Positions 523-60,998 of a stretch of DNA of 64,000 nucleotides are shown here, one piece after another. The notes beneath the pieces are model-generated. The model was not told the origin of the DNA and ran no database searches. It saw nothing but the letters and a program-made list of their open reading frames with translations. The translations under genes were made by a program, and so were the position numbers. How positions within the stretch are numbered: the first letter of the stretch is position 1; each line of letters begins with the position of its first letter. Source of the DNA: Bacteroidota bacterium (GTDB taxonomy: Bacteria; Bacteroidota; Bacteroidia; Chitinophagales; Saprospiraceae); assembly GCA_020160935.1 (NCBI GenBank), contig JAIUPL010000010.1:1-64000 (forward strand), in the 5' to 3' direction.

Positions 523-625
523 ACTCTACACTTTGTGTCCTTTGTGAAACCTTCGTGTTCTTCGTGGTAAAAAGATTTAACCACAACGGGCACGAAGGTT
601 TCACGAAGGACACAAAGTGTAGAGT
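523..625. repeat. long inverted repeat, TTTGTGAAACCTT family, copy 1
   Basis: Arms at 523-571 and 576-625 are near-perfect reverse complements and start with ACTCTACACTTTGTGTCC. They lie between the TPR gene stop (744) and the hypA start (497). The same family recurs at 6471, 48241 and 60775. Between this element and the TPR stop, 656-743 holds an unpaired stretch with ATCCGTT-like units and a GTTCGGCT-type motif resembling the arm ends at 14689-14906. Confidence 0.85.
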
Positions 626-743
626 GTACAGATATTATTCATTACAAGGTAATGGCCGTCAGGCCATAAAATCCGTTAAAATCAGAAAAAATCCGTTTCA
701 TCCGTTCTTCCATCCCTCTACGAGCGGCGTAGCCGAACAGACA

Positions 744-2261
744 CTACTGTTCCTCCAGCACCACCCGCAACTGCTCCAGTTTGAGCAATTGTTTATCCGC
801 TTCGGCAACAAGCCCCGGGTCGTTCGTCAGCGATTTCGCTTCGCGCGCCATCTCGATCATCTGCTCGAAAAACGCCTGGTTGGAGTTCTCTTCGTCTAAT
901 TGCACATGCCAGCAAGACTCCACGTAGTTCAGCAGCGTGACGGCGCGCTCCATTGGCCAGGCTTCTGCGGTGCGTATAGCCAGCGCTTCGGCGTAGTAAA
1001 ACAGCGCTTTTTCATAGTTATCGGTGTGGATGGCCTCGGGATATTTCGTCAGCGCATTGGCGTAATTGCAGCACACCATGGCGTATTCGTACGGGTACTG
1101 TTCGCGGGTGTAAAACTTCAGCGCCTGCTGAAACGAGGACGACGAAATGCCCGCCCAGATGCTTTTTTTCTTTTCCTCATCCGGCATTTCCGCATAAATA
1201 ACGCCCAGATACTGATGGATGTCGGCATACACGTCGGGGGTTTCATCGATGTCGAATACCTTCAAAGCATGCTGAAAACTTTCCAGGGCACTTCGGAAAA
1301 ACTGCGGATTATCTTTTTGGGCCCAGGTGTACAGCAGAATGCCCCTGCGATAGTGCGCCTGCGCGAGCAGTTCGGGCATTTCTTCCGCTCTCAGAATCTC
1401 GACCGCCCGGTTGATGTAACCCAGCGCTTCAGAAAAACTTTCCGAGTAATTGGCCACCTGGGCGGCGTCGATCAGCAACAGCGCTTCTTCCAACTTGCGC
1501 TCCTGTTTCTGATATTGCTGGAGCACATCCCAAAGCATGTCTTTCAGACTGGAAAGCAGCGCAGTGTCGTAAGGGACTACCAGTTTTTTCATCCACACGC
1601 CGCAGAGCGTTGCCTTGAGTTCGGGCGTTGCGTCGTCAGAAATGGCCGATTTAAGTGCGTCTTCCAGCAAGTGTTCCGCTTGCAGCAATTCGCCGAGGTC
1701 GGTCAGGAAAATGGCATATTGCCGTGCTGTGAAAGCATAATATTCGCCATTGGGCGCGCTGTTGAGCGCTTCCCGGTAGAAATAGCGGGTTTTATCGAGG
1801 TCGAAACCCGTTTCCGTGGCAGCATAATGGTGTAAAATGGCCGAGTTGTGGCAGAAGCGGTATTCTTCAAAAGGGTTGAAATCCGATGTAAGGCGCTGTG
1901 TATCAATGGGAATGCCGTTTTGAAGGCAATTGATGATGTCGATGTCATTCAGCAGCACTGAACTGCCGGCAAGGTATTCGTAGGCCTTTTCGTAGTTGCC
2001 TAATTTGGCAAAAACGAGGCCCAGCAAATGCGACGCATTGAACTCGATTTCCTCCGACAGCAGGTAAGGCGGCATCACATTCTGCCAGTCGAGCGGCTGC
2101 GTGATGCCGTTCTTTTTCCGGACAATCAGGTGAAAAGCCGAAGATTTAGGCGCTTGTTCCAGCAGATCGACAAGGTCGACGAGTTCGTGGAGCCGCGGCT
2201 CGGAATGTATCATCTGCCCGATTTCAGGCAGCAGGTCGGAAGTAGTGAAAATGCTTATCAT
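744..2261 (-). CDS. TPR-repeat protein of the hydrogenase locus
   Basis: A 505-residue soluble protein with no signal peptide or membrane segment. From about residue 145 to the end it is built of TPR-like helical pairs, with recognisable alanine/tyrosine-rich units such as YFYREAL, SFQHALKVF, SFQQALKFY and ALFYYAEALAI. The N-terminal 130 residues match nothing I recognise. Its start overlaps the stop of the upstream 103-residue gene in an ATGA arrangement (2258-2261), so the two are probably translationally coupled. Being cytoplasmic and downstream of the maturation protease, it is likely a hydrogenase assembly or partner-binding scaffold. That role is inferred only from position; I recall TPR genes near group 2a hydrogenases elsewhere but cannot verify it here. 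Confidence 0.8.
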   Translation of the reverse strand: MISIFTTSDLLPEIGQMIHSEPRLHELVDLVDLLEQAPKSSAFHLIVRKKNGITQPLDWQNVMPPYLLSEEIEFNASHLLGLVFAKLGNYEKAYEYLAGSSVLLNDIDIINCLQNGIPIDTQRLTSDFNPFEEYRFCHNSAILHHYAATETGFDLDKTRYFYREALNSAPNGEYYAFTARQYAIFLTDLGELLQAEHLLEDALKSAISDDATPELKATLCGVWMKKLVVPYDTALLSSLKDMLWDVLQQYQKQERKLEEALLLIDAAQVANYSESFSEALGYINRAVEILRAEEMPELLAQAHYRRGILLYTWAQKDNPQFFRSALESFQHALKVFDIDETPDVYADIHQYLGVIYAEMPDEEKKKSIWAGISSSSFQQALKFYTREQYPYEYAMVCCNYANALTKYPEAIHTDNYEKALFYYAEALAIRTAEAWPMERAVTLLNYVESCWHVQLDEENSNQAFFEQMIEMAREAKSLTNDPGLVAEADKQLLKLEQLRVVLEEQ

Positions 2262-2569
2262 AAAGTGACGTGCAGCATGCGAACGCCCGGCTGGTGCATG
2301 TACAGCAGGTCGCGGTCAGAGTCATCCAAATCGTGGTCAATGATAATTTCCTGCAGGGAAATGGTTTTGTCGCCTTCGAGATTTCTGGTTTTCAACATTT
2401 GCAGGTCGCCCTTGTGAATGGTCGGAAAAATCTCGTCGTCCATAGGCGCCAGTAGCAATGCATGAAGTTGCGGGTAATAAACGGTGTATACCTTATCCAG
2501 GTCGCCAAAAACAGTTCCGGCAATATCGCCTGAAATCCAGAGGTGTTGTGTGCGCAGTTTTATTCCCAT
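2258..2569 (-). CDS. small uncharacterised protein of the hydrogenase locus
   Basis: A 103-residue acidic protein with no recognised domain, signal peptide or membrane segment. Its start codon lies inside the end of the maturation protease gene (10-bp overlap, 2560-2569) and its stop overlaps the TPR gene start by 4 bp. It is therefore sandwiched in a tightly coupled protease-orphan-TPR unit. This makes it a real gene and probably an accessory factor for the hydrogenase, but the sequence gives no reaction. The alternating hydrophobic pattern in the first half suggests a small beta-rich fold. Confidence 0.75.
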   Translation of the reverse strand: MGIKLRTQHLWISGDIAGTVFGDLDKVYTVYYPQLHALLLAPMDDEIFPTIHKGDLQMLKTRNLEGDKTISLQEIIIDHDLDDSDRDLLYMHQPGVRMLHVTL

Positions 2570-3054: not shown

Positions 3055-3080
3055 TTATTCTTTCGTTTTGAATGTGTTTT

Positions 3081-3572
3081 AGTGTTTTGGGGGCCTCAGC
3101 CCCCGGCCCCCTCTCCAACGGGAGAGGGGGAGGGGGCCGCTCTTGGCTTTTGTAATAATTGCAGGCTGTTAAGTTCGGTATTTGTTATCAAAAACGGGTG
3201 CAATAATAACTACAAATGACTATCCGCATGTTGTACCCCACAGTTGGGCTGGCGCCAGTACAACAACTGCCAAGCACTGTTCAGGCGGTGGTATGGGCTT
3301 TAGCCCGTCGGGACAGCGCCATTCATGGCGCTCTGCACAAAAATTATGAATAATGCGCCTTAAAAGGCGCTATCCCGACGGGCTAAAGCCCATACCACCG
3401 CCTGAACAGCGCTTGGCATATCTCGTAACTTAGGCCACTATCAAGGTCTTACCCACAGTAAAAGTCGACAGGATTCAATATGGAGATTGTCATTTAACCA
3501 CAAATGCCAAGAGCGAAGCACCTCCCCCTCTCCCGTTGGAGAGGGGGCCGGGGGGGAGGCCCCCAAAACACC
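3081..3572. repeat. outer arms of a nested inverted repeat between hydrogenase large subunit and protease
   Basis: GC-rich arms at 3081-3147 and 3506-3572 are reverse complements, sharing GTTTTGGGGGCCT, CCCCTCTCC and an outer AGAGCG/CGCTCT end. The right arm ends a few bases from the stop of the large-subunit gene (3579). Each arm also folds on itself through a CTCTCC...GGAGAG stem. Together with the inner repeat, this explains most of the 524-base gene-free gap 3055-3578; no ORF of note is seen there. Confidence 0.85.
3269..3417. repeat. inner 52-nt inverted repeat
   Basis: Arms 3269-3320 and 3366-3417 are nearly perfect reverse complements around a 45-nt loop. They contain GTATGGGCTTTAGCCCGTCG, itself partly self-complementary (GGGCTTTAGCCC). 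The element lies inside the outer repeat, giving a two-level hairpin. I recall phrases of the GGGCTTTAGCCCGTCGGG type as dispersed repeats in unrelated environmental bacteria; that is recall only. Confidence 0.85.
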
Positions 3573-3578
3573 CCAACC

Positions 3579-6289: not shown

Positions 6290-6303
6290 GTTGTAGGTCA
6301 GTA

Positions 6304-6346: not shown

Positions 6347-6470
6347 CAAGATTTCGTCTAAGATAGACTGTTGGCCTTTATTGTATTTAAGGTAGCAAGA
6401 AGAGGAATGAATGAATCGGATAGGGGAGATTCGTTGCGGATTCCCTTACCATGCACAAAAATGATTTGTA

Positions 6471-6576
6471 CACTCTACGCATAGTGTCCTTTGTGAAACC
6501 TTGGTGTACTTCGTGGTTAAAAAAAATTTACCACAAAGGCCACCAAGGTTTCACAAAGGACACTATGCGTAGAGTG
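6471..6576. repeat. long inverted repeat, TTTGTGAAACCTT family, copy 2
   Basis: Arms 6471-6521 and 6527-6576 are reverse complements, beginning CACTCTACGCATAGTGTCC. It lies 52 bp downstream of the stop of small subunit copy 2 and upstream of the copy 1 promoter, so it could end the copy 2 transcript. The 410-base gap 6218-6627 is explained by this hairpin plus the promoter/operator region. Confidence 0.85.
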
Positions 6577-6627
6577 TGCCCGCTTCTTATTATTCGATTC
6601 ATCCAGTTTATCCATCCTGATACCAAC

Positions 6628-11051: not shown

Positions 11052-11059
11052 AAAGATTT

Positions 11060-11196
11060 ATGATATCCGATTACATGATGTATGATGTACGATTGGATTG
11101 AAGATTGGGGATTTTTGATTGATGAAGATGCCCTCCATCTAAAATCGTCCTTCCAAAATCCAATCATACATCGTACATCATGTAATCGAATATCAT
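11060..11196. repeat. inverted repeat between convergent genes
   Basis: Arms 11060-11099 and 11157-11196 are reverse complements containing ATTACATGATGTATGATGTA. The element fills the gap between the convergent stops of the M43 protease (11051) and DUF4249 (11201). The unit pattern is related to the GATTTAC family at 44417. Confidence 0.85.
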
Positions 11197-11200
11197 ACAT

Positions 11201-12034
11201 CTATTCAATTATCGTCGTGTCCCGGTCATACACCAAACACGTAAAAATACCCAGCGGATTGGCACTGCCGCTCACGTTGCTCTTGATCCGCGAAGGTTGT
11301 GCGAAAGGGTTGGCGCTGCCGGCAATAGCCAACTGGTAACTTTCCACATAATCGGAGTAATCCTTCGTCATATGAAAAACGGTGTTGAACACGGTGTCCC
11401 CGTGCGTCAGCTCGTAACCTGTACCAAAAGCGATGAGCGCATTGGTGGAGATGCGGTCGTTGACCAGGAAATCCTGCTCCGGGAAACTGTCCAGCGAACC
11501 ATAGTGCAGCATCCGGCGGTAATAATTGGGCTGGCTGAGGTCGTCGGTGATATAAGCCAGCACTCGAGCCAGCGTGTCGCGCTGCGGGTTCCAACTGACC
11601 ACTACGCTGTCGAGCGGCACAAAGGGAAGCATAGTCGTCTGGCCTGTGATCGTGCTTCCATTTTCGAGCACAATATTCAGGGTATAATTGGCGCCGACGG
11701 TAGCGGGCACAATTTTCGTACCCACATAATTGAAAATTTTCAACGGACTACTTTCAAATGCCAGTTGATTGGCCAGGGTATCGGTTTGTCCATTGTAGGA
11801 AATGGTTACCAGCGCGCCCTGCAAAAGGGTTTTGTTGAGAAAACTGGAATCCAGCCCAAAGGGATCGAAAAAACTGTAACTCTGTGTCAGCAAAAGGCGG
11901 AACGGTTTGCCAGGTTCGAGGTAGCATTCCACCACTGGCTGCCGGTCGTATTCGGGCAGGTTGATGTCCACGTCTTTGGTGAGGTTGCATGCGGCCAGAA
12001 ATGCGAGGCCGAGGATAGGCAGTATATTTTTCAT
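11201..12034 (-). CDS. DUF4249 family lipoprotein
   Basis: A 277-residue predicted outer-membrane lipoprotein with signal peptide and lipobox FLAAC (Cys16). The N-terminal region, with INLPEYDRQPVVECYLEPG, is typical of DUF4249 proteins, which in Bacteroidota accompany TonB-dependent receptors. It lies 65 bp downstream of, and in the same direction as, the TonB receptor, so both are probably one operon. It may be a surface-exposed partner lid or ligand-binding protein; the substrate is unknown. Confidence 0.85.
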   Translation of the reverse strand: MKNILPILGLAFLAACNLTKDVDINLPEYDRQPVVECYLEPGKPFRLLLTQSYSFFDPFGLDSSFLNKTLLQGALVTISYNGQTDTLANQLAFESSPLKIFNYVGTKIVPATVGANYTLNIVLENGSTITGQTTMLPFVPLDSVVVSWNPQRDTLARVLAYITDDLSQPNYYRRMLHYGSLDSFPEQDFLVNDRISTNALIAFGTGYELTHGDTVFNTVFHMTKDYSDYVESYQLAIAGSANPFAQPSRIKSNVSGSANPLGIFTCLVYDRDTTIIE

Positions 12035-14688: not shown

Positions 14689-14906
14689 AAGGCCGTTCGG
14701 CTTCGCCTCACGACAAAGGGGAACTTAGATTTAGCGGATCGGGCAGATTAAATAGATTTTTGTGGCCTGTCGGCCACATTTTGATATTATTTGCACACTA
14801 CAAGTAACATCAAATAAGGCCGCAAGGCCATAAAAATCTATTTAATCTGCCCGATCCGCTAAATCTAAGTTCCCCTTATGCCGTGAGGCGAAGCCGAACG
14901 GCCTTT
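14689..14906. repeat. 73-nt inverted repeat downstream of M36 protease
   Basis: Arms at 14689-14761 and 14832-14906 are reverse complements built from GCCGTTCGGCTTCGCCTCAC, CTTAGATTTAGCGGATC and GGGCAGATTAAATAGA phrases. A second GCCGTTCGGCTTC copy follows up to the M36 stop at 14935. This accounts for about half of the 519-base gap 14416-14934; the rest (14416-14688) is the TonB receptor leader, in which I see no gene. Confidence 0.85.
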
Positions 14907-18798: not shown

Positions 18799-19623
18799 AT
18801 GGATTACTGGAAATACAGCCTTTTGACCGACCCCGACACGGCGCAGGTGCTGCTCGCTTACCTGTCGGACGCACCTTTTGATACGTTTGAAGAAACGGAA
18901 ATCGGCCTCGATGCCTACCTGCCTGCAAAGGCCTCCAAGGCCGAGGCAGATCATTTGCTCGAAGAATTGTCGCAACAGTTTCCCTTTACCATAGAACTGA
19001 CTTTTTTGCCTGCTCAAAACTGGAATGAAATCTGGGAAAGCAATTTCAAACCGGTGGTCGTGGGCAATTTTTGCGCTGTCCGGGCCGATTTTCACCCGCC
19101 GCAACCCGACGTAAAGTGGGAACTGGTCATCAATCCCAAAATGGCCTTCGGAACGGGCCACCACGAAACCACCTGGCAGTGCATTGCTGCCATGGAACAC
19201 CTGCCGCTGGCCGGCGCCCATGTGCTGGATTATGGCTGCGGCACAGGTATTCTGGCCATTCTGGCCTCTAAACTGGGCGCTGCCGATGTGGAAGCCGTCG
19301 ATATCGAGGAGGAATCCTGGCGCAATACAGTCGAAAATTCGGCTGTCAATGATGTACACAATGTGACCGCCCGTTGCGGCACCCTGAACGATGTACAGGG
19401 CCACGATTTCGACGGCATCCTGGCCAATATCAATCGAAATGTCATACTGGACTCCTTGCCCCGCCTTGCCCAACTGACGCGCCCCGGCGGCTGGCTGCTG
19501 GTGTCGGGTATCCTCGCGGAAGACGAAACCATCGTGGTAGAAACCGCCCGACAGGCAGGTTTTGAGAAAAAAAAGCAGACGCAAAGGGGGAATTGGTTGT
19601 GTGTGGAGTTTTTTAGAGGGTGA
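18799..19623 (+). CDS. prmA: ribosomal protein L11 methyltransferase
   Basis: S-adenosylmethionine-dependent enzyme that methylates ribosomal protein L11. It has 274 residues, a normal length. Seen motifs: GTGHHETT, the SAM-binding motif I DYGCGTGILAI and the NINRNV motif of PrmA. The start at 18799 is the first ATG. The last residues and stop (Phe-Arg-Gly-TGA) read into the first unit of the adjacent GTGAGAG repeat, so the C-terminal tail is partly repeat-encoded. Confidence 0.95.
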   Translation: MDYWKYSLLTDPDTAQVLLAYLSDAPFDTFEETEIGLDAYLPAKASKAEADHLLEELSQQFPFTIELTFLPAQNWNEIWESNFKPVVVGNFCAVRADFHPPQPDVKWELVINPKMAFGTGHHETTWQCIAAMEHLPLAGAHVLDYGCGTGILAILASKLGAADVEAVDIEEESWRNTVENSAVNDVHNVTARCGTLNDVQGHDFDGILANINRNVILDSLPRLAQLTRPGGWLLVSGILAEDETIVVETARQAGFEKKKQTQRGNWLCVEFFRG

Positions 19624-19815
19624 GAGAGTGAGAGATGTGAGAGGGTGAGAGTCCGTAGAGTGTACCGCTTCGCTCATTGGATTTATGTAGTAAAGTAGTA
19701 AAATCTACGGTCTCTCACCCCTCTCACTCTCTCACCCTCTCACTTCTCTAACCCTCTCACATCTCTCACTCTCTCACTCTCTCACATCTCTCACCCTCTC
19801 ACGCTCTCACTCTCT
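19612..19815. repeat. GTGAGAG heptamer inverted repeat
   Basis: The left arm (19612-19660) is degenerate GTGAGAG/GTGAGAT units. The right arm (19704-19815) is the complementary CTCTCAC series, longer and partly unpaired. The left arm ends in CCGTAGAGTGTACC, a motif shared with other elements. It overlaps the prmA stop and fills most of the 314-base gap 19624-19937 before the 1523-residue protein gene. Confidence 0.85.
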
Positions 19816-24509: not shown

Positions 24510-24512
24510 AAG

Positions 24513-24637
24513 TGAGTTATGAGTTTTTAAGTTATGAGTTATGAGTTATACGCACGTTGCTATCGGCTACTGTAAAAATGAAGCCAATAGCAATGTGAGT
24601 ATAACTCATAACTCATAACTTAAAAACTCATAACTTC
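24513..24637. repeat. GAGTTAT heptamer inverted repeat between convergent genes
   Basis: Arms 24513-24551 and 24601-24637 are complementary series of GAGTTAT/AAGTTAT units with matching TTTTTAA interruptions. They flank a loop that itself pairs partly (CGTTGCTATCGGCTAC with GAAGCCAATAGCAATG). The right arm overlaps the last 18 bases of folP, supplying its final residues and TAA stop. Confidence 0.88.
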
Positions 24638-26186: not shown

Positions 26187-27413
26187 ATGCCCATGTGCGC
26201 AACTGTTTCAACATCCTCTCGTGCGGCTGTGGCCGCTCCTTCTTCCCTGCGGTATAGTTATTTCCGCTCCATCGATGCTGCCGGTCGCGATTGGGATCTG
26301 GCTGCACCTGCCCACGATATTTTTCTGCAACGTCCGTATCTGAGCATCCTTGAAAGCAACCCGCCTGAGGGCATGCGTTTCGGATACCTCGTTTTTTATG
26401 GAAATGACGAACCCATCGGTGTTGCTATTTGCCAGATCAAATACTTCAAAGGCGACGATAATATCAACGACCTGCAGGTATCTGCCAAAGAGCCCTGTTT
26501 TTTTCACGGTCTGGCGCAGTGGTTCAAACGCTGGGTAGCAGGAAAAACGGCTGCTGATATCCTCATTTGCGGCAATATGCTGCTGACCGGCGAACATGGT
26601 TTTTATTTCCATGAAGATAAAATCGGGCAAACTGCATTTACCGAACTGCTCGAAAAAGCCCTCGATGAAGTGATCGACATCATGGGGCGTGAAGGCGTAA
26701 AAATGCCCGTCATTCTGGTAAAAGATATTGCGCAACACCATAAAGAACAAGGCGAAACGCTCACACAAAAAGGTTTTTTTGAGTTCTGTATCCAGCCAAA
26801 TATGGTGATGGAACTACCTTTTGCCGATTTCGATGCATATCTCGCCGCCATGTCGACCAAATACCGCACCCGTGCCAAAAGGGCCATCAAAAAACTGGAA
26901 GGTGTGGAAAAACGTGAAATGACGCTGGTGGATATTCAGCGAGAACTGCCGCGCATTTACGCCCTCTACAAGGAGGTGGCTAAAAATGCCGGTTTCAACA
27001 TGGTCGACCTGAATGAGTATTACCTGCTGGCGCTCAAACGCGACCTCGGCCATGCATTTCGCATGCACGGATATTATCAGGGCGAAACTTTACTGGCTTT
27101 TTACACAACGATCGTCAACGGCCATGAACTGGAAGCCCATTTTCTGGGCTACGACAAACATCTCAACCACGACCTTCAGTTGTACCTGAATTGCCTGTAC
27201 GACATCGTACGCATTGCTTTTGAAAGTTCATGTACGGAAATTGTTTTTGCCCGTACGGCCCTGGAAATAAAAAGTTCGGTCGGCGCCGTTGCGCACGACC
27301 TGTTGTGCTACGTGCGGCACCAGAATTCACTGGTCAATAATTTCACCGGCACGATACTGGAGTATTTGAAGCCTGTGGAAGAATGGGTGCCAAGGCATCC
27401 TTTTAGAGAGTGA
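26187..27413 (+). CDS. GNAT/FemAB-like acyltransferase
   Basis: A protein of about 408 residues resembling the GNAT-fold 'peptidoglycan biosynthesis' group (COG3146/FemAB-like). It has a central basic stretch, STKYRTRAKRAIKKLEG, and a C-terminal acetyltransferase-like half with AHFLGYDKHLNHDLQLYLNC, a FemAB-type pattern. It has no signal peptide. The ATG at 26187 is chosen; a TTG at 26166 and the ATG at 26193 are alternatives. The substrate cannot be told. The final Phe-Arg-Glu-TGA is written in the first heptamers of the repeat at 27405. Confidence 0.75.
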   Translation: MPMCATVSTSSRAAVAAPSSLRYSYFRSIDAAGRDWDLAAPAHDIFLQRPYLSILESNPPEGMRFGYLVFYGNDEPIGVAICQIKYFKGDDNINDLQVSAKEPCFFHGLAQWFKRWVAGKTAADILICGNMLLTGEHGFYFHEDKIGQTAFTELLEKALDEVIDIMGREGVKMPVILVKDIAQHHKEQGETLTQKGFFEFCIQPNMVMELPFADFDAYLAAMSTKYRTRAKRAIKKLEGVEKREMTLVDIQRELPRIYALYKEVAKNAGFNMVDLNEYYLLALKRDLGHAFRMHGYYQGETLLAFYTTIVNGHELEAHFLGYDKHLNHDLQLYLNCLYDIVRIAFESSCTEIVFARTALEIKSSVGAVAHDLLCYVRHQNSLVNNFTGTILEYLKPVEEWVPRHPFRE

Positions 27414-27543
27414 GAGGGTGAGAGAGTGAGAGGGTGAGAGAGTGAGAAGGTGAGAGGCGTAGAGTACACCGTGTACTCTACGCCTCTCACCTTCTCACTC
27501 TCTCACCCTCTCACTCTCTCACCTTCTCACTCTCTCACCCTCT
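27405..27543. repeat. GTGAGAG heptamer long palindrome between convergent genes
   Basis: Left arm 27405-27469 (degenerate GTGAGAG units ending GCGTAGAGTACAC) and right arm 27471-27543 (GTGTACTCTACGC followed by CTCTCAC units) are complementary in the same unit order, with essentially no loop. It runs from the stop of the GNAT gene to within a few bases of the stop of the next convergent gene. Confidence 0.92.
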
Positions 27544-29536: not shown

Positions 29537-29589
29537 AGAGGTGAGAGGTGAGAGGTGAGATGCGAGAGGTTAGATTTGATGTGAGAGAT
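29537..29589. repeat. GAGAGGT heptamer tract, single arm
   Basis: Degenerate GTGAGAG/GTGAGAT units starting TTAGAGGTGAGAGG in the divergent gap between the SRPBCC and DUF72 genes. No complementary arm is seen. Confidence 0.7.
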
Positions 29590-30545: not shown

Positions 30546-30665
30546 AGTTATGAGTTATGAGTTATGAGTTATGAGTTTTACTCACGTTGCCTTTGGCTAC
30601 TATAAAGAAAAAGCCAAAGGCAACGTGAGTAAAACTCATAACTCATAACTCATAACTCATAACTC
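30545..30665. repeat. perfect 54-nt inverted repeat, GAGTTAT heptamer family
   Basis: Arms 30545-30598 and 30612-30665 are exact reverse complements around a 13-nt loop. The outer part of each arm is five GAGTTAT-type units, followed by GAGTTTTACTCACGTTGCC and TTTGGCT. It spans both convergent stop codons and contributes the last residues (Glu-Leu-stop) of the FAD oxidase gene. Confidence 0.95.
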
Positions 30666-32090
30666 CAAAATGACCTTATTCGGATTCAAGATCCCCTTTG
30701 GATCAAATACCTTCTTTATCTGCCGCATCAGTTCCATTTCCGTTTTGGAAAAAACGATGTCCAGGTATTGCCGCTGAACGAGGCCTATGCCGTGTTCGCC
30801 GGAAATGGTGCCGCCGACACTTTTTACATACTGAAAAATTTCGCGGATACCTTGCGGTACGCTCACATTCCATTCCTCTTCACTCAGGCGGCCACGCAGA
30901 ATATTGACGTGCAGGTTGCCATCGCCGGCATGGCCGTAACAAACGGATTCGAAACCATATCGGGCGCCCGTTTCTTTTACTTTTTTTAGCAAAAAGGGCA
31001 ATTCAGCCCGAGGCACCACCGTGTCTTCTTCCTTGTAAATAGAATTTCTTTTGACAGCATGGGCCACGTTGCGGCGCAATTTCCAGAGGGTGGTTTTGGT
31101 GGCATCGTCGTCGGCAAAAAACACCTCTCCGCAGTCGTATTGTGCCAGTACGCCGGTAATCGTTTCACAGTCGGCATACAAACTGTCGAGGTGAAAGCCA
31201 TCTACCTCTATCAGCAAATGCGCTGCATCTTCCTCGTGGATGGGAACAGGCGTTTCACCCACATAACGCACAGCCCAGTCGATGGCATTACGCTCCATAA
31301 ATTCCAGTCCGGAAGGTGTTACGCCTGCCTGGAAAATGGCTGCCACTGCCGCACAAGCGCTTTCTGCCGAGCGAAAAGGAACCAGCATCAGCAGGCTTTG
31401 AGTAGGGTAGGGCTGTAGTTTGAGTACAATTTTCGTGACGATGCCCAGCGTGCCCTCACTGCCTACGATCAATTGTGTCAGGTTGTAACCAGTCGAGTTT
31501 TTGAGCGTGTTGGAACCTGTCCAGATTACTTCACCGTTGGGCAGCACCACTTCGAGGTTCAGCACATGGTCTTTCACCACGCCGTATTTCACCGCTTTGG
31601 GTCCGCCGGCATTGGTGCTGATATTGCCGCCGATGAACGACAATCCGCGGCTGGAAGGGTCGGGCGGGTAAAACAAGCCCTTCTCTTTCAAGGTGTTTTG
31701 CAATACTTCGGTGATAACGCCTGGCTGTGTGGTGACCTGAAAATTGCGTTCGTCAATGAACAATATCTGGTCGAAACGCTTCATGGAAATCACCAACCCG
31801 CCCTGTACCGGCAAAGCGCCGCCTGCCAGTCCCGAGCCGCCACCGCGAATGGTGACAGGTATATTTTCCCGATAACAAACCCGCATAAGGGCGCTGATTT
31901 CCTCGGTGCTGGCTGGAATGGCCACCGCTTCGGGCAGGTACAGCAGATCTTCCGTTTCGTCGTGTCCGTGTTCCCGGAGTGCCGTTTCATCTGTGAGGAG
32001 GTAGTTTTCACTCACTATGCTGCTTAATTCAGTAAGTGTGGAAGCGGAGATAGGGGCGAAGGCGTTACTTTTGCCGGGAATTGTGGTCAT
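30657..32090 (-). CDS. FAD-linked oxidase, GlcD/lactate-dehydrogenase-like
   Basis: A flavoprotein of about 477 residues of the glycolate oxidase GlcD / D-lactate dehydrogenase family. An FAD-binding PCMH domain (residues about 40-220) is seen: IPVTIRGGGSGLAGGALP, PPDPSSRGLSFIGGNISTNAGG and GSEGTLGIVTKI. The C-terminal substrate/FAD cap has CYGHAGDGNLHVNILRG and GTISGEHGIGL. It likely oxidises a 2-hydroxy acid. The ATG at 32090 is chosen; in-frame ATGs at 32108 and 32123 exist, the last overlapping the divergent barrel gene. It is divergent from the barrel protein. Confidence 0.9.
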   Translation of the reverse strand: MTTIPGKSNAFAPISASTLTELSSIVSENYLLTDETALREHGHDETEDLLYLPEAVAIPASTEEISALMRVCYRENIPVTIRGGGSGLAGGALPVQGGLVISMKRFDQILFIDERNFQVTTQPGVITEVLQNTLKEKGLFYPPDPSSRGLSFIGGNISTNAGGPKAVKYGVVKDHVLNLEVVLPNGEVIWTGSNTLKNSTGYNLTQLIVGSEGTLGIVTKIVLKLQPYPTQSLLMLVPFRSAESACAAVAAIFQAGVTPSGLEFMERNAIDWAVRYVGETPVPIHEEDAAHLLIEVDGFHLDSLYADCETITGVLAQYDCGEVFFADDDATKTTLWKLRRNVAHAVKRNSIYKEEDTVVPRAELPFLLKKVKETGARYGFESVCYGHAGDGNLHVNILRGRLSEEEWNVSVPQGIREIFQYVKSVGGTISGEHGIGLVQRQYLDIVFSKTEMELMRQIKKVFDPKGILNPNKVILEL

Positions 32091-35602: not shown

Positions 35603-35760
35603 GTTTTGAACAGGATTGGGTGGATTTTGATGGATTAGAAGGATTTCCTTTTTAAAGTTGACAATTATTAGTATTGACAATTATATTAATTTCAAAAATT
35701 GTCAACTCTAAAAAGGAAATCCTTCTAATCCCTTAAAATCCACTTAATCCTGTTCAAACT
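35603..35760. repeat. long inverted repeat between convergent icd and TPR genes
   Basis: Arms 35603-35666 and 35698-35760 are complementary, containing GTTTTGAACAGGATT, TGGATTAGAAGGATTTCC and AAAGTTGACAATT phrases with small mismatches. Like other elements, it spans almost exactly from one stop to the other. Confidence 0.88.
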
Positions 35761-37371: not shown

Positions 37372-37614
37372 AGTGAGTGGTGAGTGGTGAGTAGTGAGTG
37401 GTGAGTGGTGAGTGGTGAGTAGTGAGTAGTGAGTGGTGAGTAGTGAGTAGTGAGACAAGGTACTGTACCCTTGGTTTTGACAATAGAGTAGCCAAGATTA
37501 TTTCACCCTACTCACCACTCACCACTCACCACTCACCACTCACTACTCACCACTCACCACTCACTACTCACTACTCACCACTCACCACTCACTACTCACC
37601 ACTCACCACTCACT
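37372..37614. repeat. GTGAGTG/GTGAGTA heptamer inverted repeat
   Basis: Left arm 37372-37455 (about 12 units) and right arm 37508-37614 (about 15 units) use the two variants GTGAGTG and GTGAGTA. From the outer ends, the first five units match in order (G,G,A,G,G), after which the arms differ by unit gains or losses. It explains most of the 353-base gap 37257-37609 and supplies the AAG-TGA end of the nucleotidyltransferase gene. Confidence 0.93.
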
Positions 37615-42400: not shown

Positions 42401-44417
42401 TGAAACCACCCTGTACACCGCTACCGTATCGGTTCCTGGTTGTGTAAAAACAGAAACCATTTACGTGATCGTCGACAGTCTGCCGCAAAACCTGGCTATT
42501 CTGCCGGGTGATACAACCATTTGCCAGGGCAGTCAGGTTATTCTTCGTTCTACTGTGTATGAGCCTGCTGAATTCCCGAATATTGAATTTATCTGGACGC
42601 CTGGTAACGGGCAATTGACACCTGACAGCCTGTTTAATATGGTCGTTCAGCCAGATGATACGATCACTTACCTGCGTTCGACCCGCAACGGTGCCTGTTT
42701 GTCTATGGACTCTGCACTGGTGAACGTTATTCAACCGCCTCAAATGACCGTAACCCCTGCCACGAGCAACCTCTGCTTGGGTGAAAGTGTATTGCTCGAT
42801 CTGACTGTCCCGGATGGCGTGGAAGATATTATGTGGACGCCGGAAACTGGTCTGTCATGTACAGAATGCAACGACCCCACCGCAACGCCTACAGGCTCTA
42901 CCACCTACACAGCGCAGGGAACTTTCCAGGGATGCCCGACCAGCGTAACTGCGACAGTCAATGTGAAAAACCCGCCGGCTTATCAGTTCCCATCGGATAC
43001 AGACCTCTGCGGCGGCGAATCCATTACGCTGAACCTTGTCAATGATCCGACAGCAACGTACACCTGGACCTCTACCGATCCTGCTTTCGGAACGGTTACC
43101 ACGGCGCAACCAACGATCACGCCCACGCAGAATGCTACATACACCCTGACGGCTACCAACGGTTGTACAGTGACCGCAACCCTGTCGGTAACCGTTGCCA
43201 ACGGTGTACTGACAACTGATGGCGACACGACCATTTGTTCAAATTTCAATACGCCGCTGTCCGCTTCGGGCAACCTGCCAGGCACTTATCTGTGGAGCAC
43301 TGGCTCCACACAACAGGCCATTGTGGTGGCGCCTGCTACGACGACAACATACACTGTGATTTATACATTCGGCGATGAGTGCACGCTGACTGATGAAATT
43401 GTGGTGAACGTACAAGGCCAGGGCGCAGAAGTTACATTCCCGACAGACGTTCAGTTGTGTCCGGGAGAAAGTGTAACCCTCAATTCTACCGTTACGCCTG
43501 GCGCTACTTATAGTTGGTCGGGTTCGCCGGGAGGCTTCACATCCAGTGATGGCGCGCCGACGGTTTCGCCTGCTGTTTCAACCACGTACTCGGTCACTGC
43601 TACCCTGGGTAGTTGTGTGCGTACAGAAAGCGTTTCCGTTACCGTATTCAGCGGTGTAACCTTGACAGCGCCCAATGACTTGACGCTCTGCGAAGGCGAA
43701 AGCGCTACGCTGACAGCGAATGGTTCGGCAACCGGTACCTATCAATGGACACCAGGTGGAAACACACCATCCATCACGGTATCGCCAACATCCAATACCA
43801 CCTACAACCTCCTGTACACCTATGGAGACGGCTGTACGCTCACCGATGCTGTGACAGTGACGGTGGTGCCAAGTTTCGATGTCCGCATAGAGCCAACGCC
43901 TGATACTACTCGTATTTATGTTGGAACGCCGCTGGAATTGATGGCCATCGTTTCGCCTACCCAGAGCCTGACCGGATTCCAGTTCCAGTGGTTAGAGAAT
44001 GGAGTGCCATTCGGTACAGGTGAAAGTTTCAGCGCTGAACCCACTACCCAGGACAGTGCCCGCTTCTCCTACGTAGTAGTAGCCACATCCCCGAATGGTT
44101 GTGTCGCATCCGATACGTTCTCACTGACGGTACTACCTCCAGTTGTGGTTATTCCAAATGCGTTCACGCCCGGCAACGACGATTCGAACAACACTTTTGG
44201 ACTGGTTATCCTGGGCGGCAACGTCACTGTTGAAAGCATGGATGTGTACAATCGATGGGGCGAAAAAGTATTTACCAGCACAGCACCCAATGCCCGCTGG
44301 GACGGCCGCGTAGATGGCAATGAAGCGCCTTCGGATGTGTACGTCTATGTGATCAAATGGCGCCGCGGCGACGGCGCACTGGAAGTGGCGCACGGCGACG
44401 TGACGCTGCTGAGGTAG
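39432..44417 (+). CDS. giant surface protein with CUB-like, Ig/PKD-like repeats and gliding-motility-type C-terminus
   Basis: A protein of about 1661 residues; the signal peptide MKTFTTLIFSFCSFWLLAQA sets the start at 39432, though the ATG three codons upstream is possible. Order: an N-terminal beta domain (to 185); a CUB-like domain (about 185-295, TATESGFDYLHFYEG-type core); two more beta domains (to 640); then about ten PKD/Ig-like repeats, each starting near 'D...ICQGxSVxL...W.P' with paired cysteines; and a C-terminal type B sorting domain (VIPNAFTPGNDDSNNTFG, VYNRWGEKVF). Probably T9SS-exported and cell-surface-attached, for adhesion or gliding. It ends exactly where the repeat begins. 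Confidence 0.9.
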   Translation: MKTFTTLIFSFCSFWLLAQAPVNDDCSGLIDLGEVPFCSDPAQYTNVNATTSVIAVPSENIPACFNNEADRDVWFQFTLPADGSIVDVSISVFGNIFGNGTMQMPQVAIYRGDCTFGGLAELDCAAAPLNVNQVVLEQFGLTPGIPYYLRINDYSATGSPNAGTFRLCVEEYIPDINMGDAPGSESCTGTLWDSGGEDGDYSPSENLTFSICPQDFHQCIILTVQNYATESGFDYLHFYEGEGTTGTQITQIGGNGQDFQVQISGDCATVEFTSDGSVQDEGFQITWVCSPNVCNAPPVTTCADPVSVGTLPYSMSGLNNCFSGNTINGGPCDNDEAFLSGNDYVFSYTSPGDECIHITTSGTNTEAGIGVYDACPTAPNANCITSAGGGFNSSNPIVGAAFLENPGTYYIVFGAGDDCSPFSISVDTITCPVILPPASTCDAALNIGGCSTTLPQVIALTPGSGDPGFIQQGVNQGCILGPQENFSFFYFVAGADGKFGFAVQANNPAEASDIDFNVWGPIDSPEDICDHVTNNQPIRSSWAAGADLTGLADVHPLLGTPVLDEFDCGSPATPGTGANADDFVSRIDVEQGKIYVILLDDFGNAIVNDGISINFDVTTEGVLDAQDNQITITADTAVCNGQPVQLLVTGGAAYSWEPNPTLSCINCPDPIATPNESTTYQVQVATTCSQITKIVDVKIIELSLGPDVTVCNGADFTLNPNPYPEATYTWSGSAGLSCTDCPSPQVAGLTTGTYTFIGVLSTPQCVKTDTVIVNVISGQQPQYNIAEDQIICAGTTVNLGGASVPGTFYIWTSVPAGLEDETSNPSVTPTATTTYYLEAANGSCVVTAIDSVTVTVYQSPVLSVQSDTVICQGQSVVLGTTDVETGIQYEWTPADGLDAPNTANPIATPTQTITYTLVASNPGCTETRTVDIQVSTIDLQVNVEDTLQICQGTSIPIQALSSPTGTPVEWSPLAGLQVGPGGASVTATPNETTLYTATVSVPGCVKTETIYVIVDSLPQNLAILPGDTTICQGSQVILRSTVYEPAEFPNIEFIWTPGNGQLTPDSLFNMVVQPDDTITYLRSTRNGACLSMDSALVNVIQPPQMTVTPATSNLCLGESVLLDLTVPDGVEDIMWTPETGLSCTECNDPTATPTGSTTYTAQGTFQGCPTSVTATVNVKNPPAYQFPSDTDLCGGESITLNLVNDPTATYTWTSTDPAFGTVTTAQPTITPTQNATYTLTATNGCTVTATLSVTVANGVLTTDGDTTICSNFNTPLSASGNLPGTYLWSTGSTQQAIVVAPATTTTYTVIYTFGDECTLTDEIVVNVQGQGAEVTFPTDVQLCPGESVTLNSTVTPGATYSWSGSPGGFTSSDGAPTVSPAVSTTYSVTATLGSCVRTESVSVTVFSGVTLTAPNDLTLCEGESATLTANGSATGTYQWTPGGNTPSITVSPTSNTTYNLLYTYGDGCTLTDAVTVTVVPSFDVRIEPTPDTTRIYVGTPLELMAIVSPTQSLTGFQFQWLENGVPFGTGESFSAEPTTQDSARFSYVVVATSPNGCVASDTFSLTVLPPVVVIPNAFTPGNDDSNNTFGLVILGGNVTVESMDVYNRWGEKVFTSTAPNARWDGRVDGNEAPSDVYVYVIKWRRGDGALEVAHGDVTLLR

Positions 44418-44570
44418 ATGATTTACGATTTACGATTACATGATTTACGATGTACGATTGGAATTTTGATTGCAGATTTATGATTGGTGACGCCTCATTC
44501 GCTCAAAAATCATAATTCAAAATTCCAATCGTACATCGTAAATCATGTAATCGTAAATCGTAAATCATCA
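44417..44570. repeat. GATTTAC heptamer inverted repeat between convergent genes
   Basis: Arms 44417-44470 and 44515-44569 are complementary runs of GATTTAC/GATGTAC/GATTACAT units with GATTGGAATTTTGA at the inner end. The left arm starts at the TAG stop of the giant surface protein; the right arm ends at the TGA stop of the GxxExxY gene. Confidence 0.93.
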
Positions 44571-47574: not shown

Positions 47575-47613
47575 TCTCACTCTCTCTCACTTTCTCACTC
47601 TCTCACCCTCTAA
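47575..47613. repeat. CTCTCAC heptamer tract, single arm
   Basis: Runs of CTCTCAC/CTTTCTCA units filling the gap between the convergent CCA-enzyme and DUF2147 genes. Read on the minus strand, it begins TTTAGAGGGTGAGAG, so the TAG stop of the DUF2147 gene lies in the repeat edge. No paired arm. Confidence 0.8.
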
Positions 47614-48056: not shown

Positions 48057-48240
48057 AGTGGGAGAAATGGTAAATGTTTGAAAATGAACGAGGTACATCC
48101 TTCAAACGATTGTGCCAAAAACCAAACCGTTTCTGCGGACGAGCAGGGAAAACGTGCAATGTTTGGGAAAATGTATGTATTTAACTGTTTTAGCAGCTCG
48201 CCGGTACAGGATGGGACAACGGATGGACGGTTTTAGAGCA

Positions 48241-48360
48241 AGCAGGTGTACTCTACGCTTTGTGCCCTTTGTGAAACCTTGGTGTTCTTCGTGGTAAAAA
48301 TTTTAACCACAACGTGCACAAAGGTTTCACAAAGACCACAAAGCGTAGAGTACACCTGCT
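48241..48360. repeat. long inverted repeat, TTTGTGAAACCTT family, copy 3
   Basis: Arms 48241-48299 and 48301-48360 are reverse complements with AGCAGGTGTACTCTACGC at the outer ends and a one-base loop. It lies downstream of rdgB, 55 bp before its stop. The 358-base gap 48057-48414 contains this element and the DUF2147 leader; no other gene is seen. Confidence 0.9.
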
Positions 48361-48414
48361 TTTTTTAAGTATAAACCTGTTATAAGGCGGTACAATCGCA
48401 GCATCTTTTGAAAT

Positions 48415-54351: not shown

Positions 54352-54376
54352 TCTGTTGTTTCTTAGTAATTTATGG

Positions 54377-54425
54377 AGTCCCGAGTTTTGGCCAAAGCCA
54401 GAATTCGGGACTTTTTCTTTTTCCC
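54377..54425 (+). terminator. intrinsic terminator after M12B protease
   Basis: A 16-bp stem (AGTCCCGAGTTTTGGC with GCCAGAATTCGGGACT, two wobbles) with a 4-nt loop, followed directly by TTTTTCTTTTT. Clear hairpin plus T-run, 26 bp after the stop. It is the only conventional rho-independent terminator I could find in the window. Confidence 0.9.
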
Positions 54426-56389: not shown

Positions 56390-56608
56390 TTATTGGTTAT
56401 TGAGTTATTGGTTATTGAGTTATTAAGTTATTGGGGGTTGGTAAGGGTTTATTTTCACTATCATTTGGCATTCCTTTCTGTGTGGCCAAATGATAGTGAA
56501 AATAAACCCTTACCAAACCCTAATAACTCAATAACCAATAACTAAATGATAGTGAAAATAAACCCTTACCAACCCCCAATAACTCAATAACCAATAACTC
56601 AATAACTA
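56389..56608. repeat. TTATTGG/TTATTGA heptamer element with duplicated right arm
   Basis: Left arm 56389-56469 starts in the last base of the ABC gene stop with TTATTGG/TTATTGA units and ends with TTTATTTTCACTATCATTTG. Two tandem complementary copies follow (56484-56542 and 56543-56608), so the right arm has been duplicated. It fills the gap up to the purH promoter. Confidence 0.9.
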
Positions 56609-56613
56609 AATTG

Positions 56614-58182: not shown

Positions 58183-58202
58183 GAGGTGTTTTGGTTTTTT
58201 TA

Positions 58203-58329
58203 GTGTTTTGGTGTTTTTGTGTTTTGGAGGGCGTTGCTCTCGGTATTTGTTATTTACTTCGCTCTCTTTGAGCCTGTAATCACCACGGCCAAGAGCGAAG
58301 CCTTCCAAAACACCAAAACACAAAAACAC
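58203..58329. repeat. inverted repeat of GTGTTTTG-type units after purH
   Basis: Arms 58203-58240 and 58292-58329 are complementary, made of GTGTTTTGGTGTTTTTG-like phrases and an AGGGCGTTGCTCT-like inner end (mismatched AGAGCGAAGCC on the right). The inner end resembles the outer arms at 3081-3572. It lies between purH and the small exported protein gene. Confidence 0.83.
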
Positions 58330-58336
58330 ACGAAGA

Positions 58337-58753
58337 ATGAAAAACATCCTCCTCTTCCTCCTGTTCGCCAGCGTTGCCTACGCCCAATCCGCTGCCGAAA
58401 AAACCATCCGTTCCATCATGGCCGATCAGGAGCGCGCCTGGAACCGTGCCGACCTCGAAGGTTTTATGGACGGCTACTGGCGCTCCGACAGCCTGCGATT
58501 CATCGGCTCGCGCGGACTCACCTACGGCTGGCAACAAACGCTGGATAACTACAAAAAAAGTTACCCGGGCCCCGAAGCGATGGGTCAACTGAAATTTACC
58601 ATCCTTTCCGTAGAAATACTCTCTAAACGCAGCGCCTACGTCATCGGCAAATGGGAACTCACGCGCGAGGCCGGAAACCTGAGCGGGCACTACACGCTGC
58701 TGTGGAAAAAAATGAAGGGAAAATGGGTGATCGTGGCGGATCACTCTTCTTAG
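58337..58753 (+). CDS. exported NTF2/DUF4440-like protein
   Basis: A 138-residue protein with a signal peptide (MKNILLFLLFASVAYAQ) and an NTF2/SnoaL-like (DUF4440-type) domain: IMADQERAWNRADLEGFMDG, IGSRGLTYGW, HYTLLWKKMKGKWVIVADHSS. It may be a small periplasmic binding protein or enzyme; no ligand is indicated. The stop TAG falls within a TTAGAGGTGAG edge of the adjacent repeat tract. Confidence 0.87.
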   Translation: MKNILLFLLFASVAYAQSAAEKTIRSIMADQERAWNRADLEGFMDGYWRSDSLRFIGSRGLTYGWQQTLDNYKKSYPGPEAMGQLKFTILSVEILSKRSAYVIGKWELTREAGNLSGHYTLLWKKMKGKWVIVADHSS

Positions 58754-58885
58754 AGGTGAGAAGTGAGAGTGCGTAGAGTGTGCCATGTATGTTACGCCTC
58801 TTTTACCTCTTTTGCAGGTGATTTGGCGTTGAATGGCAAATTTTTGTCCTGCTGATTTATATGTTGGGGCAACGGGCAACGGTAC

Positions 58886-58913
58886 GTAGAGACAAGGCAT
58901 GCCTTGTCTCTAC
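58886..58913. repeat. 28-nt perfect palindrome, GTAGAGACAAGGCA half-site
   Basis: The half GTAGAGACAAGGCA is followed by its exact reverse complement. A second copy is at 59138-59167. It lies in the 410-base gap 58754-59163, which also has a short GTGAGAG tract with GCGTAGAGTGTGCC (58754-58785), the hairpin at 58938-58970 and no gene. I recall GTAGAGAC...GTCTCTAC palindromes as dispersed repeats in several phyla. Confidence 0.85.
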
Positions 58914-58937
58914 TGCACCCCGCCCGTTTCAAATCCG

Positions 58938-58970
58938 AACGTCGGCAGGGTTGTGCACCCTGCCGACGTT
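58938..58970. repeat. 13-bp stem hairpin
   Basis: AACGTCGGCAGGG and its exact complement CCCTGCCGACGTT around a 7-nt loop, in the convergent gap. There is no T-run, so a classical terminator is not indicated. Confidence 0.8.
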
Positions 58971-59137
58971 TCACCGTACACGCTATGGCCCCTCACCTCT
59001 CGCTTCTCGTCGGCGGGTTAAAATTTTAGTGAGCAGATCCAAAAATATCGTGGCAGGACCCAAACGCTTCATAAAATGACCGGAATGGGTCTATTTCAGG
59101 GCCGTATTGATCCATATGGCAAGGTGTATGGTGCGCG

Positions 59138-59167: not shown

Positions 59168-60666
59168 TGCGTTGCCGTTTGCGCATTAATCCTTCCCCAT
59201 CCAAATTCGCCATTTCGGCTCGGGTAATAGTTCGCACTCGTTTTCAGGCGGTCATATACCTGCTGGCGCGTCCAGGAAGGGTATTTTCCCCAAACAAGGG
59301 CGGCAATGCCAGCGGTAGTGGCGGTAGAAACGGAGGAGCCGCCGACGGTAGACGGAGCATCACCCGAATCAGCCAGAGACAGCGGGTGGTCGTCGGAGTT
59401 TTTCTCCATCACCACTACGAAATCCACTTTGCTGCCGCTGTGGCAGGCGCTGCAACGGCTGGTAAGGTTGGTTTTGATGCCCGTAACGGCCACCGCCTGG
59501 GTCATAGAGGCCGGGAAAATAACACCTGCAAACCAGGCCGTCCAGGAGAACGAGGTGCCGGCGGCGCAGAAGATCAGTTTGCCCTGGTTGTAGGCATAAA
59601 TGATGGCATCGCGAATCTGGCTGGCCGTGGTAAGGCGGCCCATGCTCATGCTCACGATTTTTACAGAAGCCGTGTTGCCGGCCAGCGTAAAGGCATTGGA
59701 AACGCCCACCGTTTCATTGCTGGTGTCGAGGTACACGTCGTCGGCAGCGCGTACGCCCACGAGGTTGGCATTGTAGGCCACGCCAACGGTATTGCCGTCG
59801 GTGCCGCGCGGACCGGTGCAGGTACCCATCATGGAAGTGCCGTGGCCGCAGGGATCGTTGGCAGAAGTAGCGCCCGGGAGTGTGTAGTATTTGGTCACAG
59901 TGCGGCCGCTCGATTGGCCCTGGTTGAAGGCAGAGCCCAGGTTTTCCTGGCTGCTGCTGCAACCACTGTCGACGATCATCACGGTTACACCAGCGCCAGT
60001 GTTGCCATTGGCCCATGCTTGGGCGATGTTGTGATAGGAATAGTTCCAGGATTGTTTGCAGTTGGGAGCAATCACGGTGTAGTCTGTACCTGCTACCAGG
60101 CCCGTTTGAGCGGTATTGCTGCCGCAGCCGGAACTCGAGCGTTCAGAAACTGTTGTCATATAAGGCTCATAACCAATCGGTTCTGCGTAGCGCAACAGAT
60201 TCGAATTGCGCAGGGCTGTGATGGTTTGCGGGTTTTTCACATACACATCGAACACTGGCAGGTTCGGATTTTCTTCGTACGCCAGGATGTCCGATGTTTT
60301 CAGCGAAGGATTCAGGCTGCGCTCCGAATCGAGTACGATACGGAAAACGGCATCCCGCGCGCCTTTCCATTCGGAAGATTGCAGGTCGATCAGGTGGATT
60401 TTTTCGTCGAGGTTGCTGAAACCGGCTGGTTGGTAGCCCACAGAAAGTACATAATCGGAATTGGACAGCGCGGTCCAGATTTGATCGTCGCTGGCCCAGG
60501 CCCAGAGAAATTGTTCTTCCGTTTCTAATTTGGCCTGAATAAACTTGTCGAGGGAAGCCGGGTCGGGTATGGCCGGATGATCGGTGGATACAGACGATTC
60601 CTGTTTTCGGCAACTGTTGACACTTAGAAACAATGCTGCACAGAGGAGTAAGGTTGTTCTTTTCAT
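59164..60666 (-). CDS. S8-family serine peptidase, lipoprotein
   Basis: A 500-residue subtilisin-like protein. The signal peptide and lipobox-like VNSC (Cys19) suggest a lipid anchor. A propeptide-like region (25-170) precedes the catalytic domain: D233 in MIVDSGC, H275 in CGHGTSMMG, S445 in GGSSVSTATTAG. The oxyanion-hole Asn, normally AAGN, reads T371 in CAAGTSFSW, and the usual Pro of the GTSMAxP motif is Ala. Several extra cysteines (181, 203, 236, 273, 283, 405, 408) may form disulfides. It may be a variant active peptidase or an impaired one. Confidence 0.88.
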   Translation of the reverse strand: MKRTTLLLCAALFLSVNSCRKQESSVSTDHPAIPDPASLDKFIQAKLETEEQFLWAWASDDQIWTALSNSDYVLSVGYQPAGFSNLDEKIHLIDLQSSEWKGARDAVFRIVLDSERSLNPSLKTSDILAYEENPNLPVFDVYVKNPQTITALRNSNLLRYAEPIGYEPYMTTVSERSSSGCGSNTAQTGLVAGTDYTVIAPNCKQSWNYSYHNIAQAWANGNTGAGVTVMIVDSGCSSSQENLGSAFNQGQSSGRTVTKYYTLPGATSANDPCGHGTSMMGTCTGPRGTDGNTVGVAYNANLVGVRAADDVYLDTSNETVGVSNAFTLAGNTASVKIVSMSMGRLTTASQIRDAIIYAYNQGKLIFCAAGTSFSWTAWFAGVIFPASMTQAVAVTGIKTNLTSRCSACHSGSKVDFVVVMEKNSDDHPLSLADSGDAPSTVGGSSVSTATTAGIAALVWGKYPSWTRQQVYDRLKTSANYYPSRNGEFGWGRINAQTATQ

Positions 60667-60774
60667 GCGAAGACGGTATTTAATTTGAATGATTAGAGTG
60701 CGAAAATATTGTTTGTTTTACGTTATTGCATAGAGGTGTATAAAGATTTGGAATTTTTATTTTGTGGAAAAGTG

Positions 60775-60998
60775 GGCGTACGCTACGCTTTGTGTCCCTT
60801 GTGCAACCTTGGTGTCCCTTGTGGTAAAAAATTTTGGTAACTATACCCATTTACACACAGGCTGTAAAAAAGGGTACAAAAACCTATAAGGTTTTATAAA
60901 CCTTATAGGTTTAGGTGCAAATGGGTATAGTTACCAAAATTTTTTTAACCACGAAGAACACCAAGGTCTCACAAAGGGCACAACGCGTAGCGTACGCC
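60775..60998. repeat. compound inverted repeat, TTTGTGAAACCTT family copy 4 plus nested palindrome
   Basis: Outer arms 60775-60854 and 60917-60998 are complementary, made of GGCGTACGCTACGCTTTGTG and TTTTGGTAACTATACCCAT parts. Inside is a shorter palindrome, AAACCTATAAGGTT with its complement, at 60880-60912. It lies in the divergent gap between the S8 protease and the DUF3857 gene (408 bases, 60667-61074), unlike most family members, which lie after genes. Confidence 0.88.

What the first reader, a model, noticed from the sequence alone, without database searches (positions are those of the whole stretch)
523..60998. Genome-style system of stop-codon-anchored inverted repeats at the ends of transcription units
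At least 16 long inverted repeats were found. They sit almost only downstream of gene ends and typically start within a few bases of a stop codon. In convergent pairs (11060, 24513, 27405, 30545, 35603, 44417) the hairpin fills the gap from stop to stop. Sequence families differ completely (GTGAGAG, GAGTTAT, GTGAGTG/A, GATTTAC, TTATTGG/A, GTGTTTTG, TTTGTGAAACCTT and GC-rich types), but placement and symmetry are the same. Only one classical terminator was seen. This suggests that position and symmetry, not sequence, are selected or that a transposition or repair process targets 3' ends. Possible roles: bidirectional terminators, 3' RNA protection, or barriers to read-through antisense RNA.
Basis: partly seen in the sequence, partly recalled or inferred. 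Interest (0 to 1): 0.82.

Follow-up and report, generated by a model that had tools for sequence, protein, structure and literature searches.

The report
Repeat-built hairpins capping gene ends
This uncultured Saprospiraceae bacterium carries long, near-perfect DNA hairpins built of 7-10-letter repeats at the ends of many genes; relatives keep a hairpin at the same places while its sequence is rewritten or swapped, which points to a fast-changing population of dispersed palindromic elements rather than fixed terminators.

Summary
In detail: 16 long inverted repeats in the window and 151 in 864 kb of this genome, none in shuffled sequence. They occupy 50/102 convergent, 77/458 tandem and 13/101 divergent gaps. 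'Stop-anchored' holds for families with short-repeat arms (28/38 tandem cases within 15 nt of the stop) but not for two others (0/15).

At convergent window junctions, relatives hold a hairpin in 21/22 comparisons, yet its sequence is rewritten or replaced while the arms stay matched. Mismatches show no G.U excess over A.C (68:62), few hairpins have a U-tract, and occupied convergent gaps equal empty gaps plus one element. I read them as dispersed palindromic repeat elements, tolerated mainly at gene 3' ends, with arms matched at DNA level; termination is a possible by-product, not shown.

They resemble REP/REPIN elements and the heptameric repeats near stop codons of Xanthomonas/Nostoc, but meet neither definition. 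New variant of a known kind. Unexpected leads: RAYT-type REPs lie beside a GTGAGAG array at 7/7 loci; this genome has no detectable SbcD, though repeat density does not follow SbcCD cleanly.

The parts
523..625 (.). hairpin, TTTGTG family, 118 nt from the nearest stop
3268..3418 (.). GC-rich hairpin, 160 nt from the stop; G080 has a GTGTTTTG hairpin 5 nt from the stop in this gap
6470..6577 (.). hairpin, TTTGTG family, 50 nt from the stop; the G080 gap is 161 nt and has none
   Evidence: RNA fold -83.9 kcal/mol
11054..11202 (.). convergent gap, GATTTAC family
14716..14877 (.). long hairpin 57 nt from the stop (classed GATTTAC by one word match only)
19615..19782 (.). tandem gap, GTGAGAG family, overlaps the stop; hairpin also in G080, G075 and G073
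24515..24635 (.). convergent gap, GAGTTAT family
   Evidence: fold -79 kcal/mol (24510-24640)
27405..27535 (.). convergent gap, GTGAGAG family, 64 of 65 pairs; called stop codon lies in the arm
   Evidence: fold -135.2 kcal/mol
30540..30670 (.). convergent gap, GAGTTAT family, 58 of 59 pairs
   Evidence: fold -94 kcal/mol
35605..35758 (.). convergent gap, AACAGGATT (nGGATT) family
37372..37614 (.). tandem gap, GTGAGTG family, 83-nt arms
44417..44569 (.). convergent gap, GATTTAC family, 53 of 53 pairs; G080 has GATTTAA words here
48240..48361 (.). tandem gap, TTTGTG family; no hairpin in this gap in G080, G075 or G066
56399..56611 (.). tandem gap, GTTATTG family; the right arm is present twice in tandem
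58189..58343 (.). tandem gap, GTGTTTTG family; GATTTAA in G080, CACGGATT-type in G066
   Evidence: fold of 58189-58333 -62.7 kcal/mol
60775..60998 (.). divergent gap, TTTGTG family with a second hairpin (60826-60945) in its loop; absent in G080
47584..47611 (-). leftover single GTGAGAG arm in a convergent gap
29537..29560 (+). single GTGAG-type array in a divergent gap, no partner arm; similar array in G080
58750..59009 (.). GTGAGAG-type arms about 200 nt apart with other palindromes between, in the gap 58753-59164
   Evidence: read by eye
54375..54414 (+). classical terminator (18 pairs, then T-rich tail); G066 has a GTTGATG hairpin in this gap

Best explanation
These are many families of dispersed palindromic repeat elements, about 60-350 bp long, most with arms made of short tandem words of 7-10 bases that point inward. 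They have spread in one group of Saprospiraceae relatives and are kept mainly at gene 3' ends, above all between convergent genes, where an extra ~130 bp does least harm. Shown here: dispersal in families, place, symmetry, turnover at orthologous sites, one word specific to each of two genomes, cases of nesting, and no RNA-type bias among mismatches. Inferred: new copies arrive by transposition or by copying from other loci, and the two arms are kept matched at DNA level, by template switching within the hairpin or by insertion of one palindrome into the tip of another. Any terminating, 3'-end-protecting or anti-read-through effect would then be a by-product that may help to retain them.
For: 151 repeats in 864 kb, 0 in a shuffle; 50 of 102 convergent gaps occupied against 77 of 458 tandem and 13 of 101 divergent. 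Arms of one copy are more alike (0.84-0.96) than arms of different copies (0.35-0.80 on average) in all ten families compared. Convergent gaps less the hairpin have median 17.5 nt, empty ones 18 nt; tandem gaps under 20 nt are occupied in 6 of 101. Against G080 ten hairpin pairs are 0.42-0.75 identical, 14 hairpin-free gaps have median 0.795 (range 0.62-0.95), and the arms of each hairpin are 0.87-1.00 paired. Tandem mismatches: G.U 68, A.C 62, other 83. GATTTAC words in G000 (7 hits, none in G080), GATTTAA in G080 (9 hits, none in G000). Nested or composite palindromes at window 60775, G080 19623 and G066 58182 (by eye). Empty sites in G080 at 48098, 6223 and 60633. Whole-genome: 191 places of GAGTTATx3, 0 of the reversed control.
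Against: No transposase was tied to the hairpins: Y1_Tnp matches number 2 in G000, and the hairpin beside the full one is of another sequence. No clear target duplications in five families inspected by eye. The second genome-specific word, the 8- or 7-base period of GTGAGAG, does not differ significantly at locus level (25:23 against 6:13, p 0.18), and the GATTTA contrast rests on 4 and 3 loci (p 0.03). Near-total retention at orthologous convergent junctions (21 of 22) would also fit selection for a hairpin. The mismatch test has low power for long stems.
Confidence: 0.55

Rival explanations
1. Selected bidirectional terminators or 3'-end barriers: any sequence will do as long as a strong hairpin stands between the two stops, so the sequence drifts while selection on the RNA keeps the symmetry.
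For: Place: 50 of 102 convergent gaps occupied; 21 of 22 orthologous comparisons occupied although the family often changes. Very stable folds, -62.7 to -135.2 kcal/mol, z -8.9 to -24.4 in the five folded. Convergent sides with a hairpin have T-tract terminators in 13 of 100 (15 in shuffles), those without in 10 of 36 (4 in shuffles). At 54351 a classical terminator in the window and a terminator-like hairpin in G080 stand where G066 has a repeat-built hairpin. Few hairpins in operon-like tandem gaps (6 of 101 under 20 nt).
Against: No G.U excess over A.C in tandem cases (68:62), in the word families (35:37) or in those within 25 nt of a stop (39:38). TTTT in the next 12 nt in only 12 of 78 tandem and 3 of 52 convergent cases. 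Tandem gaps with a hairpin do not lack T-tract terminators (24 of 77, 11 in shuffles; without a hairpin 53 of 206, 28 in shuffles). Half of the convergent gaps do without one (52 of 102).
Confidence: 0.27
2. Insertion actively targeted to gene 3' ends, for example by a HUH (RAYT-type) transposase or another machine that recognises stop regions, terminators or existing hairpins.
For: The word families sit at or across the stop: of 102 gene ends facing them, 29 have the stop inside the repeat and 48 within 15 nt, against 0 and 2 of 23 for TTTGTG/CGCAGA. RAYT-type REPs lie within 200 nt of a GTGAGAG-type array at 7 of 7 loci in G000 and 3 of 4 in G080, while such neighbourhoods make up 2.2-2.4% of the sequence. 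A full-length Y1 transposase domain is present.
Against: The link concerns mostly single GTGAGAG arrays, not the hairpins; the RAYT gene itself is flanked by another palindrome. No shared target sequence or duplication was seen at hairpin ends (by eye). The REP pattern was written after some of these loci had been seen.
Confidence: 0.1
3. Loss of the hairpin nuclease SbcCD lets long palindromes build up; place simply reflects where they do no harm.
For: A full SbcD match (187 bits or more) in 13 of 13 genomes tested outside the genus but in 3 of 22 tested of the genus group, G080 counted in. G000 has no match at E <= 0.001 and no match to the divergent SbcD-like protein of G080 either. G000 has the highest density: 12.2 repeats of score >=30 per 100 kb, against 3.0 in G080 and 1.2 and 1.7 in SbcD-positive G068 and G071.
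Against: G067 (200 kb) and G069 (40 kb) also lack a full SbcD match and have none at that score, and G065 has 2.5 per 100 kb in 40 kb. G075 and G066 have the divergent SbcD-like protein and are about as dense as the window in regions fetched by homology (24.2 and 29.4 per 100 kb at score >=20). G000 is 97.9% complete, so absence is not certain.
Confidence: 0.08

Closest known systems
Heptameric repeats near stop codons in Xanthomonas and Nostoc (GGGAATC type; PMC4692102: passages and sections 13 and 15 read)
   Same: 7-base tandem words close to or across the stop codon; the G-rich word on the coding strand downstream of genes and on the non-coding strand upstream of them, the same 'away from the gene' polarity as the single arrays here
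   Different: Reported there mainly as repeat arrays and studied as possible G-quadruplexes ('tandemly inverted repeats' are mentioned); here 136 of 200 arrays are arms of inward pairs, many different words occur, and the tips carry further modules
TAACTGA direct repeats of Beggiatoaceae, some Cyanobacteria and Bacteroidetes (PMC4679880: passages)
   Same: Heptamer words, strain-specific spread, stop codons in all frames, occurrence in Bacteroidetes
   Different: Mostly direct repeats upstream of start codons; a single inverted case is reported there
REP/REPIN elements with RAYT transposases (PMC3116915: passages; PMC3733652: search listing only)
   Same: Dispersed extragenic palindromes in hundreds of copies; two palindromic units in inverted order forming a hairpin; a RAYT gene and RAYT-type REPs exist in this genome
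   Different: Arms of 20-80 or more nt made of tandem words, many unrelated families in one genome, no transposase tied to them, placement at gene 3' ends
Intrinsic terminators; E. coli inverted repeats downstream of stop codons (PMC6060812: passages)
   Same: Inverted repeats just after stop codons
   Different: Stems several times longer, few with a U-tract, repeat-built, replaced between relatives
Quasipalindrome template-switch correction (PMC7202029, PMC3820800: search listing only)
   Same: A known DNA-level process that makes the arms of imperfect palindromes identical
   Different: Described as a mutation mechanism; not shown here to act, only consistent with the data

Membership tests
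Intrinsic (Rho-independent) terminator | hairpin followed directly by a U-tract | tested here: not met
   TTTT within 12 nt after the repeat in 12 of 78 tandem and 3 of 52 convergent cases
Intrinsic (Rho-independent) terminator | RNA 3' ends at the hairpin | not testable with these tools
   no transcript data
REP/REPIN with RAYT | the transposase gene is flanked by the same palindrome family | tested here: not met
   the full Y1_Tnp locus of G000 (L099) has one nearby hairpin, of the GGGCGTTGCCC type, not a word-family hairpin; the flanks were read over 1.5 kb on each side
REP/REPIN with RAYT | GTAG or CGTC tag at one end of the palindrome | not tested
   feature taken from the title and abstract start of PMC3733652; not counted here
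REP/REPIN with RAYT | dispersed extragenic palindromes in high copy | tested here: met
   151 repeats in 864 kb, 5 of them classed coding
Heptameric repeats near stop codons | tandem heptamers close to the stop, word pointing away from the gene | tested here: met
   28 of 38 word-family tandem cases within 15 nt of the stop; single arrays 41 away, 4 toward
Heptameric repeats near stop codons | the GGGAATC / GGGGA(T/C)T unit | tested here: not met
   the word classes found are other words; no search for GGGAATC itself was run
Miniature inverted-repeat transposable element | target-site duplication at the ends | tested here: inconclusive
   flanks of five families read by eye, none clear
Known structured RNA family | match to an Rfam model at its gathering score | tested here: not met
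   0 matches in the window

The most novel reading that the evidence does not exclude
A bacterial lineage in which the 3' boundaries of many genes are held by a self-renewing population of palindromes: arms are copied from each other at DNA level, words are homogenised within each genome, and new palindromes nest in the tips of old ones, so that gene ends keep a strong two-way barrier without a U-tract whose sequence is never conserved. Absence of SbcCD would permit it, and a RAYT system would seed some of the arrays.
Probability: 0.2. Interest if true: 0.8.

Novelty: new variant of a known kind. Interest (0 to 1): 0.55.

Why it matters
It offers a natural system in which both arms of long palindromes change together between genomes about 85% alike in DNA, so that arm copying can be told from selection by sequencing close strains. 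It also bears on how gene-dense Bacteroidota end their transcripts when few of these gene ends show a U-tract, and on how long palindromes persist in a chromosome with no recognisable SbcD.

Tried and rejected
Rejected: chance (0 repeats in the shuffles). RNA-level selection as the main keeper of symmetry (low power for long stems). Words chosen to supply stop codons: 73 of 162 arms have stops in all three frames within 30 nt against 25 sd 4.3 in dinucleotide shuffles, but 8 of 12 words contain a stop against about 6.1 expected from permuted words (sum of the fractions), so it follows from composition and from periods not divisible by 3. A known RNA family: none in the window. Loss of SbcCD as a sufficient cause. 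REPIN membership of the word-family hairpins.

Led nowhere: literature searches with several exact phrases (no paper); promoter and terminator scans near shuffle level. A link of hairpin tips to the RAYT-type REP was tried: a TTGC..TTGGC-type motif is in 12 of 151 tips against 1 in shuffles, but 8 of the 12 are one family, so I make no claim from it.

Limits: own gene caller and ungapped repeat finder; loops over 120 nt are missed; gap classes depend on the gene calls. Counts shifted when the caller was retrained (for example convergent 26, 25 over the same sequence). In one search only junctions whose two flanking genes are neighbours in the relative were counted, each junction-genome pair once, and a hairpin anywhere in the gap counts; two of the 21 (35594 in G066 and G075) lie in gaps of 765 and 1858 nt, and the G066 one still shows a lone nGGATT-like arm in the loop of another palindrome. 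Family agreement at orthologous junctions is my reading. One search left out gaps under 30 nt (tandem under 60) and over 600 nt. Outside the genus the survey rests on 1.5-20 kb from each of 19 genomes (about 280 kb, 2 repeats of score >=20). One row, contig C322 of G073, is a perfect 12,006-base palindrome, which I take for an assembly artefact.
Full report
What the window is. It is contig 27, bases 1-64000, of a 5.84-Mb assembly in 51 contigs, 97.9% complete. The closest named relative of its 1664-residue gene is a Saprospiraceae MAG, isolate new MAG-362 (95% identity, L024; its genome is G080).

Noticed in passing
G000 C21:82523, C21:103146, C24:18092, C24:73983, C24:109099, C24:154541, C24:164316: RAYT-type REP palindromes, each within 200 nt of a GTGAGAG-type array, in the order array, spacer, REP.
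   Followed up: partly
whole genome G000 and relatives: No SbcD match in G000; full SbcD in 3 of 22 genomes tested of the genus group but in 13 of 13 outside it; a divergent SbcD-like protein in most of the others.
   Followed up: partly
L146 (G073 C322), 1-12006: The whole contig is a perfect palindrome of 12,006 bases, probably an assembly artefact.
   Followed up: no
L104 (G067), 615-1455 and 2795-2881: A Y1 transposase locus with repeated GACCTCGNCGAGGTC-type palindromes at a spacing of about 110 nt.
   Followed up: no
window 58886-58913 and about 59142-59168: Two copies of a small palindrome, GTAGAGACAAGGCATGCCTTGTCTCTAC and a near copy, in or beside the gap 58753-59164.
   Followed up: no
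window 56399-56611: The right arm of this hairpin is duplicated in direct order, as expected of slippage at a palindrome (by eye).
   Followed up: no
L051 (G066 C188), gap matching window 49973-50020: A very unequal AATGATG hairpin: one arm is extended to a long run of the word, the other is short.
   Followed up: no
window 19938-24509: A 1523-residue reading frame without a Pfam match at E <= 1e-5; its convergent neighbour is the same in G080, G075 and G066.
   Followed up: no
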